Shown here: piece after piece, positions 35,805 to 42,085 of the stretch
Layout: each line of letters starts with the position of its first letter
How positions within the stretch are numbered: the stretch's first letter is position 1
NCBI RefSeq assembly: GCF_003173355.1
Contig: NZ_QGMY01000002.1
Span: 124,001 to 188,000, forward strand
Reading direction: 5' to 3'
Source: Methanospirillum lacunae
GTDB lineage: Archaea > Halobacteriota > Methanomicrobia > Methanomicrobiales > Methanospirillaceae
Length of the DNA stretch: 64,000 nucleotides
Notes under the pieces: generated by a model
The model's database searches: none
What the model was told of the DNA's origin: nothing
Seen by the model: only the letters and a program-made list of their open reading frames with translations
Made by a program: the position numbers and the translations under genes

Positions 35805-36279
35805 TATCAGGATATAAGAGAGCAAATGGTGATAATTCTTGCGATAAAATGAGGATGATGCCTAACTTTTCCTGATATCCAAAAAGTAGAAACGAAATGA
35901 ATTGAGACTAATTTTAAAAAAATCTTCACGTTTTTTTTTGATAATTACATTCGCACTATATGGGCAATATGTCGTTGATTCCTTTGAATAACTAAATTAC
36001 GAAAATTTTCACTACCTCATTTCGGATAATTTTTTTTGGATTCAACCGCTCTTGTTTAGAATGTGCAATGATCATGGATAGTTGCCTCTGTCAGGCACGC
36101 TTATCACATTTTGATTATTGTGGAAATGAGTTTTCAGAATTACTGTACATATATTAAAAATAATCTTAAGGTTTTATGTTGGCAATCACCTGGACTACTC
36201 ATGAATATGTTTAAAAATGGAGTTTAAAAACAAATTATATATTTTCCTAACGGTTTACCAATCGGGTTGGGATTCTCAT
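35805..36279. other. AT-rich leader region before ppk-ruvCAB
   Basis: 475 bases between the end of the corrinoid activator gene and the ppk start. The region is A/T-rich with long T- and A-runs and no coding frame. It should carry the ppk operon promoter and the terminator of the activator gene. No riboswitch-like conserved box was recognised. Confidence 0.5.
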
Positions 36280-38121
36280 TTATAAAATGGAATTTGAACT
36301 GATTGCATGATATATCGGGATAGACCGTAAGTACTCTCTATTGAACGATTTTTCCACTGATAATTCTACATATTTGACCTTCATGAGGATTTTTTTAATT
36401 GATTCTCGCTCTGAACCCGATAGTAAGGCGATTTTTGATCCCCCTACTGCAGTCTCACCTGCAAGGACTACCAGATCAGGGTCAACTTGTGGGATAAGTT
36501 CAAGGCTCATCGCATTTTCAATATTGATATGAGTTCCAAAAGAACCAGCCAGCCATATTCTGGAGATTTCTGATTGGGAGATACCAAATTTTTCTAACAG
36601 GATTGTCCATCCTGCCCGGAGAGATCCTTTTGCGAGCAAAAATTCATTAATATCCTTTTCTGTGATCGTTATATCCCGATCTGTATCTGTCTCTTCTTTT
36701 GGAACTACCAGAAATTCAGGAACTACTCTTTTTATTATCCTGGGATGAGAAAGGTCAGTAAATTTTCCATTCTTTGTAATGATTCCAGCAGAAAACAATT
36801 CAGCAACAAGATCAATAATTCCGCTACCGCATATCCCTTTGGGTTTTCGGTTACCAATGGTTGTGTAGTTGAGTTTTCCATCCTCTATTGAGATAGTCTC
36901 AATTGCTCCTCCAACAGCTTTCATCCCGGCACTTATATGAGCACCTTCAAATGAAGGTCCAGAGGGAGCAGAACATACGAGGATTTTTTCCGAGTTTCCT
37001 ACCATTATCTCTGAGTTAGTCCCGATATCTATCAGAAGACTATATTCAGATTTTTCATATATTCTGGTAAGCATGAGATCAGCCACTGCATCTGATCCAA
37101 CATAACCAGCAATAAGTGGAAGTGAGGTGACTTTGCCTTCAGGAAGAATTTCAAGACCAAGATCACGTGATGGAAAACTGACCTGAGATTTTAATCCCGG
37201 GAGAAAAGGAGAGACACCTATGAATTTAGGATTAATTCCCAGAAAGAGATGGTGCATTACTGTATTTCCGTCAAAGACAATCTCATAGATTTTATCCTTT
37301 TCAATCCCCGCTTTTTCTGACATCTTTATGATTAGCGCATTAATTGTATCGATTACAAGGGATTGGATTTTTTTAAGATTTTTCGGGTTTTTTGCTGCAA
37401 AGGTAATCCGTGAAACTACATCTTCTCCATACATTATCTGCGGGTTTTCTGCATGTTCTTCTGCGATTGTAACCCCATTTAAGAGATCTACAAGATGACA
37501 GATGATCTTGGAGGAGCCAATATCGATGGCAACTCCATACATTTCTGTTGTTGTGTTTCCGGACTCAAGGGCAATGAGATCATTATTGCAGAAGACGGCC
37601 GTAATATTCCATTCAGCAGCTCGGAGGATTGCCGGCAGATTTGTTAGGATCGATAATGGAATCTGGTTGAAAATTCTCCCGACTCCAATTGTGAGTCGTT
37701 CAAGATCCGGTAATGTGTCTTCTAGAGATGGCCGGGGGAGTTGACATTGAACTTTTTGTATAACTGGTGAAAGGCTGATTCTACCTTCTAATGCGGTGCC
37801 AGATATTTCACGTGCCTCGTTTCGGCTTTCCTTCGGTATATAAATCGTGGCAGTCCCTGACAGAATTTTTACCTGGCATGCAAGCCTGATATTTTGTGCT
37901 ATTTCTTCTGCTGTCAGAAATTTCAGTTCTTTATCTGTTGGTGGTGAAATAGATCCGTATTTTTTTGCGATTTGAATCCGGCATTTCCCACATACTCCAA
38001 TCCCACCACAATCACTTCTTAATGTGATACCGGCGTTTTGGGATATTTCTAGAACTGATCGAGGGGAATCTGTGATCATTTTCCCTTCTGGTTCAAAGGT
38101 AATGGTAACTTTACCTGTCAT
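36280..38121 (-). CDS. RACo-type reductive activator of corrinoid proteins
   Basis: A 613-residue ATP-dependent electron-transfer protein that returns inactive Co(II) corrinoids to Co(I). An N-terminal plant-type [2Fe-2S] ferredoxin domain has C38, C44, C47 and C82 (DCGGIGVCGKC...LACQV). A linker (85-190) is followed by an ASKHA-type ATPase domain starting at GVAIDIGSSKI, with PSGPSFEGAHIS, LIDIGTNSEI and WLAGSFGTH. This is the architecture of RACo and of O-demethylase activating enzymes; methanogen RamA instead carries C-terminal 4Fe-4S clusters. It sits 11 bases after the MtrH-like gene on the same strand, across from a corrinoid protein, so that protein is the probable client. Confidence 0.93.
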   Translation of the reverse strand: MTGKVTITFEPEGKMITDSPRSVLEISQNAGITLRSDCGGIGVCGKCRIQIAKKYGSISPPTDKELKFLTAEEIAQNIRLACQVKILSGTATIYIPKESRNEAREISGTALEGRISLSPVIQKVQCQLPRPSLEDTLPDLERLTIGVGRIFNQIPLSILTNLPAILRAAEWNITAVFCNNDLIALESGNTTTEMYGVAIDIGSSKIICHLVDLLNGVTIAEEHAENPQIMYGEDVVSRITFAAKNPKNLKKIQSLVIDTINALIIKMSEKAGIEKDKIYEIVFDGNTVMHHLFLGINPKFIGVSPFLPGLKSQVSFPSRDLGLEILPEGKVTSLPLIAGYVGSDAVADLMLTRIYEKSEYSLLIDIGTNSEIMVGNSEKILVCSAPSGPSFEGAHISAGMKAVGGAIETISIEDGKLNYTTIGNRKPKGICGSGIIDLVAELFSAGIITKNGKFTDLSHPRIIKRVVPEFLVVPKEETDTDRDITITEKDINEFLLAKGSLRAGWTILLEKFGISQSEISRIWLAGSFGTHINIENAMSLELIPQVDPDLVVLAGETAVGGSKIALLSGSERESIKKILMKVKYVELSVEKSFNREYLRSIPIYHAISSNSIL

Positions 38122-38132
38122 ATCTGGGCTGA

Positions 38133-39005
38133 TTACAATGTGATGTATTCCTTCATCCGGTAGGCATACCTATATGAGGTGTCTATCGTATAAACCGCTG
38201 GAAAAACGTAGGCACTATCTTCTACTGGTCCATAGAGGAGGAAATCTGAACCAAGAATTACTGGCATGAGGTTTGCAACAATGTCAGCAGATTTCACTGC
38301 ATCTTTCCCAAATAAATTCTTCACACCTGACCAGGTTGATATTGCATTATGTGCTGCTGAGCCACAGGGAAGGCCAAACCTGTTTTTTATTTCGATTGCT
38401 GCTTTTCCTGATGGAGTGAGGCTTGGAACATCCATAACAAAAGTATCAACAAAAATCTTTGAGACTCCTAAATTAGCGAGTTGTGGTGCAAATCGTTCAA
38501 CCACGGCCACCCGCTCTGTTGAACTCGTTATTTTTTTCGTATATGCAAGTAGAATTACCGCTTGTGTTCCATTCTTTTTAAGTGCATCCAATTCAGCATC
38601 TTTCGTCTCAATCGATACGGAGTTGTATATCATCCGGTCTTGCAGACCGGCTTCTTTTACGTATTCAACAGCAGCGATTTTTACATCTGCACTTGGAGAA
38701 TCGATAAGAAATGGCTTTTCACTTGCTGCTGCCACAAAGTCGATATATTTTTTGATTGCTTCAGGTGTTGAACCCACGATATCAAGGAGTGCTGGATTTC
38801 CGGTTTTATCACCAAGTTCTGCCTGTTTTTTAATTAACGCATCAGCAGCTTCCTTATCAAAAATCCCTGCCCTTTCGTCATGAACAATTTTATGACGGGA
38901 ATAAAATATGCTTCCAACCAGAGTAGTCGGTACCTCTCCTGGTTGCCCTCCAATTTTAACTCCGGCAATTTCGTATTTTTTCTGTTCGGCTTGAAATAAA
39001 AACAT
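38133..39005 (-). CDS. MtrH-family methyltransferase (MtxH/MtvA/MtoA-like)
   Basis: About 290 residues of the MtrH superfamily, which moves methyl groups between corrinoid proteins and tetrahydromethanopterin or tetrahydrofolate. It starts MFLFQAEQKKYEIAGVKIGGQPGE, followed by VGSIFYSRHKIV, FLIDSPSADVKI and GLPCGSAAHNAIS. ATG 39005 fits the family start; GTG 39014 is also in frame. True MtrH is encoded in the eight-gene mtr operon with membrane partners, which are absent here, so this is a stand-alone paralogue of the kind used in methyltransferase cassettes. It precedes the activator gene, and the corrinoid and URO-D genes are divergent. Confidence 0.92.
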   Translation of the reverse strand: MFLFQAEQKKYEIAGVKIGGQPGEVPTTLVGSIFYSRHKIVHDERAGIFDKEAADALIKKQAELGDKTGNPALLDIVGSTPEAIKKYIDFVAAASEKPFLIDSPSADVKIAAVEYVKEAGLQDRMIYNSVSIETKDAELDALKKNGTQAVILLAYTKKITSSTERVAVVERFAPQLANLGVSKIFVDTFVMDVPSLTPSGKAAIEIKNRFGLPCGSAAHNAISTWSGVKNLFGKDAVKSADIVANLMPVILGSDFLLYGPVEDSAYVFPAVYTIDTSYRYAYRMKEYITL

Positions 39006-39119
39006 TGGATTCACATTACCTGTTGCTTTTTAATTCCACGTGGTTAAATCCCGTGTTGATTTCTACAACAATATCTCATACAGATAGTGCTGGAGAGAGG
39101 ATGAATACCTTGTGTATAC

Positions 39120-39133
39120 GTGATGTACATCAC
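39120..39133. promoter_or_regulatory. Perfect 14-bp palindrome, candidate operator
   Basis: GTGATGTACATCAC is fully self-complementary and lies 115 bases upstream of the MtrH-like start. Perfect 14-mers of this kind are rare by chance in a spacer this size. It probably binds a dimeric regulator of the cassette. No regulator gene is adjacent, so the protein is unknown. Confidence 0.5.
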
Positions 39134-39323
39134 AGTTCAAAGATTGTAAAATAGCAGCCTCTGACACCGATAATCAAATATCTTACCTATGTGGTGAGTA
39201 TAATGCAACCTATTGTGGAGGCATTTGTCATTCCTCTTGAATAACACAGTAACACACCGGACCTGAGAAAATAGTTTTGTGATAGATGGCTTAATGGGTA
39301 TGTATGGGCCATATGTTTATTAC

Positions 39324-39335
39324 CTAATTAATTAG
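39324..39335. promoter_or_regulatory. Perfect 12-bp AT palindrome in the cassette spacer
   Basis: CTAATTAATTAG is self-complementary and lies about 200 bases before the corrinoid gene. With one mismatch the symmetry extends three bases on each side. It may be an operator or simply an AT-rich promoter element. Confidence 0.35.
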
Positions 39336-39539
39336 TTATAGATTAAACGTTACGCCTGTCTGTTGACGTACTAATAAAATCTCTGGAGGCAGATAGATGA
39401 ATTACAAGAGATTGCATTATTTTTAGAGTTCTTTTATAAAGACGGAGAATAACAGGTTGTAAATTATGGTAATGTTCCTGAAAAGAATGAGAGATAGTAA
39501 ACCTTCGTACGTCGTGTATCCCAGTAGGAGAAGTGAATA

Positions 39540-40175
39540 ATGACTAATTTAAATGAAGATTTTATCAATGCCCTTGTTGATCTTGATGAAACAACATGTA
39601 TAGACCTCCTTAATCAGCGAATCGCTGCAAAGGAAAATCCTATGAATATCCTCGAAGATGTTCGAAAATCAACTGACATTGTAGGCAAAAGATTCGAGGA
39701 AGGCAGGTATTTTGTTTCAGATCTGATGATGGCAGGCGAAATTCTCTCCCAGATTATGGTGATATTAAAGCCTCTCTTTGGAGAACATAAAATTGCCAGT
39801 AAAGGTTTGATCGTAGTCGGAACTGTGCAGGGGGATGTGCATGACATCGGAAAAAATATTGTTGCTGCCCTCCTTGAAGCCGAAGGCTTTGATGTAGTGG
39901 ACATTGGTGTAGATCAACCACCTGAAGAATTTGTAAAAGCTATCAGGGAACATCATCCGAAGGTCGTGAGTTTGAGTGGGCTTTTAACCGAGGCTATTGA
40001 ATCGATGAAAACTACTATTGAAGCAATCAAGGCAGCCGGGCTCAGAGATCAGGTTAAGATTGTCATTGGTGGTGGAAGATGTGATGAGGAGGCTCGGGAA
40101 TATACCACGGCTGATGCATGGGCTGATGATGCAGCGGTTGGTGTAAGGAAGATCAAAGAACTGGCAGGAGTGTGA
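39540..40175 (+). CDS. Methyltransferase corrinoid protein (MtvC/MtoC-like)
   Basis: A 211-residue methyl carrier. Residues 1-85 form the helical cap (B12-binding-2 type). Residues 90-210 form the Rossmann-like B12 domain, with the lower-ligand motif DVHDIGKN (His at about residue 101), then SLSGLLTE and GGGRCDEE. The cobalt of its corrinoid should accept a methyl group from the URO-D partner and give it to the MtrH-like enzyme. Its size matches MtbC/MttC/MtvC proteins. The start has AGGAGAAG seven bases upstream. The URO-D gene begins six bases after the stop. Homocysteine methyltransferase (MetH) is unlikely because no Hcy domain is present. Confidence 0.94.
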   Translation: MTNLNEDFINALVDLDETTCIDLLNQRIAAKENPMNILEDVRKSTDIVGKRFEEGRYFVSDLMMAGEILSQIMVILKPLFGEHKIASKGLIVVGTVQGDVHDIGKNIVAALLEAEGFDVVDIGVDQPPEEFVKAIREHHPKVVSLSGLLTEAIESMKTTIEAIKAAGLRDQVKIVIGGGRCDEEAREYTTADAWADDAAVGVRKIKELAGV

Positions 40176-40181
40176 CTGGCA

Positions 40182-41438
40182 ATGGATGGTACTCAAATTT
40201 ACCATGAAAAACTGAGTCGGTTGGAAAACGTCATTTACGGTAAAGAACCGGACCGGGTTCCAATCACCGCGATGATGTCTCTTTTCCATGCCCGGTATGC
40301 AGGGTATACTGCAAAGGATATATACTTTGATTATACCAAGAACCATGATGCTGCGATAAAAACGGCAAAAGATTTTGATTTTGATTCTCTCCTGATATTG
40401 AACGGGCTTGAAGGCACCAACATGTCACTGACCTTCATGAAAAATGCCCCAGAACTTGCATCCGGTGCCCGTTTCATGCTTGCTACCTATCATGCTATTT
40501 TGAATGATGCCTATACCAAATGGCCTGGTTCAGAGCTCGATGATAATGCCCATCCCCAGTTTCTTGGCAAAGAGATCATGAAACAGGATGAATATGATCA
40601 GTTTATTGCGGATCCTGCAGATTTTCTTAATCGCGTTGCATTACCCCGGACTTGTTCAGCTCTTCGCGATCCCGGTTCACCTGAAGCTAACGCTGCGATG
40701 CTTAAATTTGGAGCTGAGATCGGGAAGGCCGGGGCTGCACAGGGAGCGCTTATCGGAGAACTTGGGAAGATGGGTATTCCCACCTTCCCAACTGCATGGA
40801 GTTATGCACCTCTCGATGTGATGAGCGACTTTCTGCGTGATATAAAAAATATCGTGCTTGACATGTACCGCAAGCCTGATTATGTAAAAAAATCAGCCGA
40901 TGCACTTGTACCACTGCTCACAGAATCTGCAAAACTTACCGGGAATGTCCCACCTGAAGTAAAAAAGGCCCTTGGAACAAATATTGTTGAATGTTTCTTC
41001 CCATTACATCTCAACGAGTACCTTAACCCGAAGATGTACGATGAGTTCTATTGGCCATCCTTGAAAGCAGTCCTTCTGGAAGTTATTAAAATGGGACAGA
41101 CACCATACATCCTCTTTGAAGGTCGCCACGATGCTCATCTTGAGACTCTGCTTGAACTTCCAAAAGGCAAAGTTGTTGGTGTCTTTGATAAAACAGATCC
41201 CCGAAAGGTCAGAGAAGTTCTTGATGACCAAATAATTCTGGTATCAGGTCCACCGAATTCCCTCCTTATTGGAAGCAATCCACAAAAGATCGATGATTAT
41301 ATGAAATCCATGCTTGGTGATTGTAAATCCGGAGGGATGATGATTTATCCGGGAGTTGATGGTGGAATTTCAGGAGATGCAAGACCTGAAAATGTTCAGG
41401 CATTAATCCAGGCGGTAAAAAAATACGGGGAGTACTGA
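40182..41438 (+). CDS. URO-D-family methyltransferase (probable methyl donor:corrinoid enzyme)
   Basis: A 418-residue member of the uroporphyrinogen decarboxylase fold. Family features include GKEPDRVPITAMMSLFHARYAG near residue 20, the central LIGELGKMGIPTFPTAWSYAP and the C-terminal LFEGRHDAHLETLLELPKGK with SGPPNSLLIGS. The HxC-type zinc motif of the methyl-CoM-forming enzymes MtaA and MtbA is not seen; EGRHDAH stands in that region. This form resembles URO-D proteins in O-demethylase systems (MtvB/MtoB type), so it more likely loads a methyl group from an external compound onto the corrinoid than makes methyl-CoM. Heme biosynthesis is unlikely given the operon. The substrate is unknown. 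Confidence 0.88.
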   Translation: MDGTQIYHEKLSRLENVIYGKEPDRVPITAMMSLFHARYAGYTAKDIYFDYTKNHDAAIKTAKDFDFDSLLILNGLEGTNMSLTFMKNAPELASGARFMLATYHAILNDAYTKWPGSELDDNAHPQFLGKEIMKQDEYDQFIADPADFLNRVALPRTCSALRDPGSPEANAAMLKFGAEIGKAGAAQGALIGELGKMGIPTFPTAWSYAPLDVMSDFLRDIKNIVLDMYRKPDYVKKSADALVPLLTESAKLTGNVPPEVKKALGTNIVECFFPLHLNEYLNPKMYDEFYWPSLKAVLLEVIKMGQTPYILFEGRHDAHLETLLELPKGKVVGVFDKTDPRKVREVLDDQIILVSGPPNSLLIGSNPQKIDDYMKSMLGDCKSGGMMIYPGVDGGISGDARPENVQALIQAVKKYGEY

Positions 41439-41450
41439 TACGCATATTCT

Positions 41451-41476
41451 GTTTGTGGTTTAATACAACCGCAAAC
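41451..41476. terminator. Hairpin after the URO-D gene
   Basis: GTTTGTGGTT and AACCGCAAAC form a ten-pair stem (one G-U) around the six-base loop TAATAC, 12 bases after the URO-D stop and before the convergent secreted-protein gene. It is a likely terminator or transcript-end stabiliser. Confidence 0.5.
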
Positions 41477-41536
41477 AAATCTGTTTTGACTGGTTACCTG
41501 CTCAATTCAATTATTTTGTACAGAATACATAGTGAA

Positions 41537-42085
41537 TTAAAGGTTAGGCCATGTATCCGCATTTTCTGGAGTATCTACTTTACTTTCGTAATGGAAATCT
41601 TTCTGGATAGTTTTGATATATCCGTTTGCACTGGTGTGGTCTTTCAGCGAGATCTCTGCCGATACATTGGTGTCATTGCCTCTGGCTTCCATGAGGTGTG
41701 CACCAATATCAATGCTCACTCCTCCAAGTGCATACTGGTTTAGGAGCGGATCTCCTGAAGGCGTGGAACTCTGAACATCAGTTGGTTCGTTCGGGTTTTC
41801 AGTGCCGCTGTACATCCCCTGGATGTTTCCCTGAATATTTTGTGTTGAACCTGTCGAATCTGCCTCTGTTTTCTCCATGGTCTCATTGGAGTCGACGGAT
41901 CTGCTCAAATTTGTTTCCAGATTGGAACTGACGTTCACAGTACCGTTGATGGTATTATTGGTTGAATTCAAAGAGAGGTTCATACCTGATGGTGATGTGT
42001 TCCCATCGGCAGATGTACTTCCAATCAATACAGCAATGAAGACACCAAGCATAAGGAGTGTTATGAGTATTGGGCGGGTATCCAT
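41537..42085 (-). CDS. Secreted glycosylation-rich protein, MEAR-TNVSA family
   Basis: A 182-residue exported protein. The signal peptide (ILITLLMLGVFIAVLIGSTSA) is followed by a low-complexity Asn/Ser/Thr region (residues 30-110) with many N-x-S/T sites for archaeal N-glycosylation. The C-terminal domain has LMEARGNDTNVSAEISLKDHT and YIKTIQKDFHYES. That domain matches the C terminus of the protein at 14955-15656 residue for residue at key positions, so they are paralogues with different N-terminal parts. A surface or sheath role is inferred. No known domain was recognised. Confidence 0.78.
   Translation of the reverse strand: MDTRPILITLLMLGVFIAVLIGSTSADGNTSPSGMNLSLNSTNNTINGTVNVSSNLETNLSRSVDSNETMEKTEADSTGSTQNIQGNIQGMYSGTENPNEPTDVQSSTPSGDPLLNQYALGGVSIDIGAHLMEARGNDTNVSAEISLKDHTSANGYIKTIQKDFHYESKVDTPENADTWPNL

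What the first reader, a model, noticed from the sequence alone, without database searches (positions are those of the whole stretch)
36280..41438. Complete four-part corrinoid methyl-transfer cassette in a likely H2/formate methanogen
Seen: a [2Fe-2S]-ASKHA activator, a stand-alone MtrH-like enzyme, a B12-binding corrinoid protein (DVHDIGKN) and a URO-D methyltransferase, arranged divergently. Known: O-demethylase systems (MtvABC with activating enzyme in acetogens; MtoABCD in Methermicoccus) use the same four functions to move methyl groups to a pterin. Inferred: this organism can use, detoxify or scavenge methyl groups from an unidentified compound, delivering them at the methyl-pterin level. 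That bypasses methyl-CoM formation by MtaA/MtbA and would widen its substrate range.
Basis: partly seen in the sequence, partly recalled or inferred. Interest (0 to 1): 0.85.

Follow-up and report, generated by a model that had tools for sequence, protein, structure and literature searches.

The report
Mto-type demethylation cassette in Methanospirillum
A hydrogen-eating methanogen carries a complete four-gene kit, apparently acquired as a unit, of the known archaeal type that pulls methyl groups off methoxylated aromatic compounds such as lignin fragments and feeds them into methane production.

Summary
Window 36280-41438 holds four intact genes: a RACo-type activator and a stand-alone MtrH-like protein (minus strand), and a corrinoid protein and a URO-D-superfamily methyltransferase (plus strand). 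All four are orthologues of Archaeoglobus fulgidus MtoD/A/C/B (AF_0010/0009/0006/0007; 51/57/68/59% identity). That operon is induced during growth on methoxylated aromatics. Trees put the URO-D protein beside Archaeoglobales MtoB, away from the chloromethane dehalogenase CdmB, and the MtrH-like protein in the MtoA clade, away from the genome's own mtr-operon MtrH. The same four genes form a collinear cassette in several Methanomicrobiales, including Methanolacinia petrolearia, where Kurth et al. 2021 already reported Mto genes. So this is a new member of a known kind.

New here: the host is a Methanospirillum whose closest sequenced relative has an empty site (ppk and the next gene are about 50 bp apart; the module is 5.7 kb). 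The cassette is more similar to that of Methanoregula boonei than a core methanogenesis protein is, which points to horizontal gain. The Methanomicrobiales cassettes mostly lack the MFS transporter and ribbon-helix-helix (RHH) regulator found next to the Archaeoglobales versions, so the exact substrate is unproven. No public test of methoxydotrophy in these hydrogenotrophs was found.

The parts
36280..38121 (-). mtoD: RACo-type ATP-dependent reductive activator of the corrinoid protein ([2Fe-2S] + ASKHA)
   Evidence: Pfam Fer2/RACo domains; 51% to A. fulgidus AF_0010; Cys pattern C38/C44/C47/C82. Best NCBIfam is AcsV/RACo, 464 bits, below its cut-off of 800
38133..39014 (-). mtoA: stand-alone MtrH-family methylcorrinoid:pterin methyltransferase
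   Evidence: PF02007 E 4e-101; 57% to AF_0009 MtoA; 58% to PDB 8z9u, which falls in the Archaeoglobales MtoA clade; 33% to the own mtr-operon MtrH
39015..39539 (.). 525-bp divergent intergenic region, probably holding both promoters; includes a near-palindrome TTACCTAATTAATTAGTTA at about 39320-39338
   Evidence: sequence, inverted repeat I3; no Rfam match
39540..40175 (+). mtoC: corrinoid (B12-binding) methyl carrier protein, DVHDIG
   Evidence: PF02607/PF02310; 68% and 70% to the two A. fulgidus MtoC copies
40182..41438 (+). mtoB: URO-D-superfamily substrate:corrinoid methyltransferase (O-demethylase type)
   Evidence: 59-60% to AF_0007 MtoB; tree; 34% to CdmB; AlphaFold2 pLDDT 94.9, URO-D/MtaA fold
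35848..41568 (.). 5.7-kb module absent from the same place in the closest Methanospirillum genome (empty site between ppk and the gene at 41537-42085)
   Evidence: blast against G207: flanks align at 79% and 72%, nothing between

Best explanation
This is an archaeal MtoABCD methyl-transfer system. Inferred mechanism, by homology: MtoB binds a methyl donor, most likely a methoxylated aromatic (phenyl methyl ether), and lets Co(I)-MtoC take its methyl group, releasing the phenol. MtoA passes the methyl from CH3-Co(III)-MtoC to tetrahydromethanopterin (H4MPT). MtoD re-reduces accidentally oxidised Co(II)-MtoC with ATP and a low-potential electron. CH3-H4MPT then enters the cell's ordinary Mtr-Mcr path, giving methane with one H2 (or formate) per methyl group and still driving the Mtr sodium pump; part may go to CO2 or biomass. 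Shown here: the four orthologues, their conserved linkage, their clade membership, the complete mtr operon, and the module-sized empty site in the sister genome. Inferred: substrate, direction, induction, physiology and horizontal origin.
For: All four proteins match A. fulgidus MtoD/A/C/B at 51-68%, and that locus reproduces the published AF_0006-0013 order C-B-MFS-A-D-C-B-MFS (PMC8359953). The URO-D tree has the window and Methanomicrobiales beside Archaeoglobales MtoB within a 100/100 clade; CdmB is outside. The MtrH tree has the window in a clade with MtoA, far from mtr MtrH. The cassette is conserved in 11 of 232 genomes of the order, own genome included. M. petrolearia, named by Kurth et al. 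2021 as carrying Mto genes, has the same cassette at 57-74%. The complete mtr operon lies elsewhere in the genome. No other conventional MtaC/MtbC-type system was found: only one other PF02607 and one other full-length PF01208 protein exist.
Against: Substrate is not shown. The MFS transporter and RHH regulator next to Archaeoglobales and Jordarchaeum mto genes are absent here. The close superfamily relative CdmB dehalogenates chloromethane and does not touch methoxylated aromatics (PMC13222342), so homology alone does not fix the substrate. The biochemically proven Methermicoccus MtoB could not be placed in the tree (searches found no such genome). No methoxydotrophic growth of any Methanomicrobiales was found in the papers searched.
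Confidence: 0.73

Rival explanations
1. The cassette is Mto-derived but its MtoB has shifted to another methyl donor that needs no transporter, such as chloromethane or another haloalkane, so the organism demethylates or detoxifies that compound to CH3-H4MPT.
For: The best solved structure is CdmB, E 4e-71; CdmB's nearest characterised relative is MtoB (PMC13222342); the adjacent MFS transporter is missing in most Methanomicrobiales cassettes. Several hosts are marine or peat organisms, where chloromethane occurs (general knowledge).
Against: 34% to CdmB against about 60% to A. fulgidus MtoB; CdmB falls outside the clade. Residues at barrel-strand ends shared by the window, AF_0007 and Bacillota relatives (H276, E279, E313, H319) are W/S/Q/L in CdmB, so the window pocket looks MtoB-like.
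Confidence: 0.15
2. The cassette serves biosynthesis or methyl scavenging only, supplying CH3-H4MPT for methionine or acetyl-CoA synthesis or removing toxic methoxyphenols, rather than energy metabolism.
For: Single copy in most hosts, patchy distribution, no dedicated transporter.
Against: The organism makes CH3-H4MPT from CO2 in bulk, so a scavenging role has little advantage; the related A. fulgidus system supports growth (PMC8359953); G119 expanded C-B pairs with MFS genes.
Confidence: 0.1
3. A recently acquired passenger that is not expressed or not functional in this host.
For: Empty site in the sister strain and lower G+C (0.41 against about 0.44-0.50 for most flanking genes).
Against: All four frames are intact with catalytic motifs, and all four keep low dN relative to M. 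boonei; the C-B and A-D halves were rearranged without damage.
Confidence: 0.07

Closest known systems
MtoABCD of Archaeoglobus fulgidus (AF_0006-AF_0013) and Methermicoccus shengliensis
   Same: All four components orthologous to A. fulgidus (51-68%); B and C adjacent, A and D adjacent; MtrH-type MTII and RACo-type activator
   Different: Host is a CO2-reducing hydrogenotroph; no MFS transporter or RHH regulator beside the genes; A-D and C-B are divergent instead of one operon; single C-B pair
Mto cassette of Methanolacinia petrolearia (noted in Kurth et al. 2021) and other Methanomicrobiales
   Same: Same four genes and nothing else in the unit; 57-74% (M. petrolearia) to 70-84% (M. boonei) identity
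   Different: Those are collinear A-D-C-B; the window genome has the two halves head to head
CdmBCA chloromethane system of Acetobacterium dehalogenans (9rui)
   Same: URO-D-superfamily MTI plus small corrinoid protein; 34% MTI identity
   Different: CdmB lies outside the MtoB clade; its MTII CdmA is related to MtqA, not MtrH-type; pocket residues differ
MtvABC / OdmABCD vanillate O-demethylases of acetogens
   Same: Same four functions and URO-D-type MTI
   Different: MTII is not MtrH-type and uses H4folate (published descriptions)
MtgA-MtgB-MtgC glycine betaine system of Desulfitobacterium hafniense
   Same: MtrH-family MTII (38% to 6sj8)
   Different: MtgB is an MttB-family protein (general knowledge), not URO-D; NCBIfam MtgA cut-off not reached (242 of 550 bits)

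Membership tests
MtoABCD (archaeal O-demethylase system) | MtoB-clade URO-D methyltransferase | tested here: met
   Tree with A. fulgidus AF_0007/AF_0012, 100/100 clade; 59-60% identity
MtoABCD (archaeal O-demethylase system) | MtrH-family MtoA distinct from mtr-operon MtrH | tested here: met
   Groups with AF_0009 and 8z9u; own mtr MtrH is only 33% identical
MtoABCD (archaeal O-demethylase system) | Cognate corrinoid protein adjacent to MtoB | tested here: met
   68-70% to A. fulgidus MtoC copies, directly upstream of mtoB
MtoABCD (archaeal O-demethylase system) | RACo-type activator MtoD in the cluster | tested here: met
   51% to AF_0010, beside mtoA; full RACo domain set
MtoABCD (archaeal O-demethylase system) | Adjacent MFS transporter and regulator (common, not defining) | tested here: not met
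   Absent in the window and most Methanomicrobiales loci; the transporter/RHH clusters sit at the Archaeoglobales and Jordarchaeum loci examined
MtoABCD (archaeal O-demethylase system) | Demethylates methoxylated aromatics, methyl to H4MPT | not testable with these tools
   Needs enzyme assay or culture
MtoABCD (archaeal O-demethylase system) | Clusters with the biochemically characterised M. shengliensis MtoB | tested here: inconclusive
   No Methermicoccus match in the genomes searched; A. fulgidus used instead
CdmBCA chloromethane dehalogenase | MTI in the CdmB clade | tested here: not met
   34% identity; CdmB outside the MtoB clade
mtr-operon MtrH | Over the mtrH equivalog cut-off and inside an mtr operon | tested here: not met
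   268.9 against 271.4 bits; genuine mtrH is elsewhere on C9
HemE uroporphyrinogen decarboxylase | Over the hemE equivalog cut-off | tested here: not met
   31.1 against 303 bits
MtaA/MtbA methylcobalamin:CoM methyltransferase | Over the family cut-off | tested here: not met
   30.0 against 244 bits

The most novel reading that the evidence does not exclude
The transporter-free Methanomicrobiales branch of MtoB has specialised on a small, membrane-permeant methyl donor other than lignin-type aromatics, such as a halomethane, making these common hydrogenotrophs H2-dependent converters of that compound to methane through CH3-H4MPT.
Probability: 0.13. Interest if true: 0.75.

Novelty: new member of a known kind. 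Interest (0 to 1): 0.45.

Why it matters
Methanospirillum and its relatives are treated as strict CO2 reducers. If the cassette works, peat, sediment and digester hydrogenotrophs could make methane directly from methoxy groups with a quarter of the H2 per methane, while keeping the Mtr sodium pump, unlike H2-dependent methylotrophs that lack Mtr. That would link lignin breakdown to organisms counted only as CO2 reducers. The closest sequenced relative, with an empty site, is a natural negative control that makes the question directly testable.

Tried and rejected
HemE, MtaA/MtbA, mtr-operon MtrH and MtgA were rejected by NCBIfam cut-offs and trees. CdmB as the family: rejected by the tree and 34% identity. 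Zinc motif E-x14-E-x20-H (recalled for some O-demethylases): absent in the window, A. fulgidus MtoB and CdmB, so uninformative. Methermicoccus MtoB: not found after phylum and class searches; the searches around G411 and G284 turned out to be Archaeoglobi and what looks like Halobacteria. A paper on PDB 8z9u: none found. Target-site repeats or an integrase at the module ends: no shared repeat over 9 bp and no such gene seen. Riboswitch or other Rfam RNA: none. Foldseek against the PDB gave only the general URO-D/MtaA fold, because the CdmB entries were not among the matches. dS against M. boonei is saturated, so no dN/dS ratio can be given. My first impression that the C14 corrinoid protein was degenerate was wrong: it has D-x-H-x-x-G.
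Full report
OBSERVATION. Four intact genes lie at 36280-41438. Minus strand: 36280-38121 (613 aa; Fer2 + RACo linker/middle/C-terminal domains) and 38133-39014 (293 aa; MtrH). Plus strand: 39540-40175 (211 aa; B12-binding, DVHDIG) and 40182-41438 (418 aa; URO-D). The pairs are divergent across 525 bp.

WHERE IT IS. The window is G000:C2:124001-188000 of a 3.74-Mb, 25-contig assembly. A same-genus genome, G198, has exactly 3,544,738 bp, the published size of Methanospirillum hungatei JF1 (PMC4704411), so the host is a Methanospirillum. G112 (2,843,290 bp) and G121 (3,200,946 bp) match Methanolacinia petrolearia (PMC3035365) and Methanoplanus limicola (PMC4149034). G158 (2,542,943 bp) is taken to be Methanoregula boonei, G111 Methanolacinia paynteri and G330 (2,178,400 bp) Archaeoglobus fulgidus; these three rest on recalled sizes or kinship and, for G330, on gene order.

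CONSERVED UNIT. The URO-D protein has orthologues (61-79%) in 11 of 232 genomes of the order, counting the window's own genome and one fragmentary hit, and in none of the other 11 genomes of the genus. In each genome with a readable locus the four genes are neighbours, in the order MtrH-like, RACo, corrinoid, URO-D on one strand. Only the window genome has the two halves head to head. G119 has one MtrH-RACo pair followed by five or six corrinoid/URO-D pairs, one of them broken, with MFS transporter genes between some. Against M. boonei, dN is 0.12-0.23 while dS is saturated.

WHAT IT IS. A scan of named genomes and of the phylum found about 60%-identical URO-D proteins in Archaeoglobales and a Jordarchaeum MAG. 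The A. fulgidus locus reads corrinoid, URO-D, MFS, MtrH-like, RACo, corrinoid, URO-D, MFS, which is the published AF_0006-AF_0013 mto cluster, strongly induced during growth on 2-methoxyphenol (PMC8359953). The window proteins match its MtoC, MtoB, MtoA and MtoD at 68, 59, 57 and 51%. In the MtrH tree the window falls with MtoA and with PDB 8z9u (87% to an Archaeoglobales MtoA), away from the genome's own mtr-operon MtrH, which is 33% identical and sits in a complete mtr operon on C9. In the URO-D tree the Methanomicrobiales and Archaeoglobales MtoB proteins plus Jordarchaeum form a 100/100 clade that excludes CdmB and the bacterial proteins. Scores against hemE, mtaA, mtrH and MtgA models are all below cut-off. 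The AlphaFold2 model (pLDDT 94.9) is a URO-D/MtaA-type barrel.

PRIOR ART. Kurth et al. 2021 (PMC8630106) showed MtoB, MtoC and MtoD activity and gave strong evidence for MtoA in Methermicoccus shengliensis, and stated that the genes are also present in the hydrogenotrophs Methanolacinia petrolearia and Methanothermobacter tenebrarum. The M. petrolearia cassette is the orthologue of the window's. So kind and order are known. In the papers searched I found no mention of Methanospirillum, Methanoregula, Methanoplanus or Methanogenium as carriers, and no growth test of any Methanomicrobiales.

HOW IT ARRIVED. In G207, the relative with the most similar ppk (91%), ppk and the following gene are about 50 bp apart and both flanks are collinear with the window; window ~35848-41568 has no counterpart. 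In M. hungatei a weak homologue of the following gene also lies directly next to ppk. This points to gain in the window's lineage. Core MtrH identity between the window genome and M. boonei is 75.9%, but MtoA is 83.3%. In every other pair except the two near-identical Methanolacinia genomes, where they are equal, core MtrH is more conserved than MtoA. This is best explained by transfer between the Methanoregula and Methanospirillum lineages (inference). The cassette has lower G+C (0.41) than most of its neighbours. No integrase or duplicated target was seen.

MECHANISM. By homology: MtoB moves a methyl group from an aromatic methyl ether to Co(I)-MtoC, MtoA moves it to H4MPT, and MtoD repairs Co(II)-MtoC. 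CH3-H4MPT is an intermediate of the cell's own CO2 path, so Mtr and Mcr can take it to methane with one H2. The genome has no other conventional corrinoid methyltransferase set: the only other PF02607 protein is on C14 beside the only other full-length URO-D protein and a PAS histidine kinase. Two further RACo-type activators sit beside CdhE/CdhD-like corrinoid subunits, so MtoD is probably the cassette's own activator.

SUBSTRATE UNCERTAINTY. CdmB (PMC13222342) shows that close relatives of MtoB can use halomethanes instead of methoxylated aromatics. Against that for the window: about 60% to A. fulgidus MtoB against 34% to CdmB, and the strand-end residues H276, E279, E313 and H319 are shared with A. 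fulgidus MtoB but replaced in CdmB; that these residues line the pocket is inferred from the barrel topology. For it: the MFS transporter and RHH regulator of the Archaeoglobales clusters are missing. I put about 0.73 on an Mto system acting on methoxylated aromatics; membership of the Mto family itself I put near 0.95.

VERDICT. Interest 0.45.

Noticed in passing
L036/L037 (G119:C3:288000-326000): One methanogen genome has one mtoA-mtoD pair and five or six tandem mtoC-mtoB pairs (one broken), some with MFS transporter genes between them: a possible multi-substrate array sharing one MtoA and one MtoD.
   Followed up: partly
L008:6811-10704 (G000:C14:28810-32703): Corrinoid protein (DYHMLG), MtaA-like URO-D protein and a PAS histidine kinase with a weak DUF1638 match, next to chemoreceptor-like genes: looks like a corrinoid-linked sensor module rather than a catabolic system.
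   Followed up: partly
L143:3370-7757 (G000:C7): A second RACo-type activator between a CdhE-like corrinoid/iron-sulfur subunit and a 341-aa protein with no Pfam or NCBIfam match; a separate methyl-transfer unit of unknown role (perhaps methionine synthesis).
   Followed up: partly
L144:5525-10095 (G000:C8): A third RACo-type activator beside acetyl-CoA decarbonylase/synthase gamma and delta subunits: a RACo-type activator in an archaeal ACDS cluster.
   Followed up: no
PDB 8z9u chain B: Deposited as MtrH, but it is 76% identical to A. fulgidus MtoA and 87% to another Archaeoglobales MtoA, so it appears to be a solved MtoA structure.
   Followed up: partly
L048:5376-10268 (Methanogenium cariaci): The cassette's mtoA, mtoD and mtoB reading frames are split by frameshifts in this draft genome, from decay or sequencing error.
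   Followed up: no
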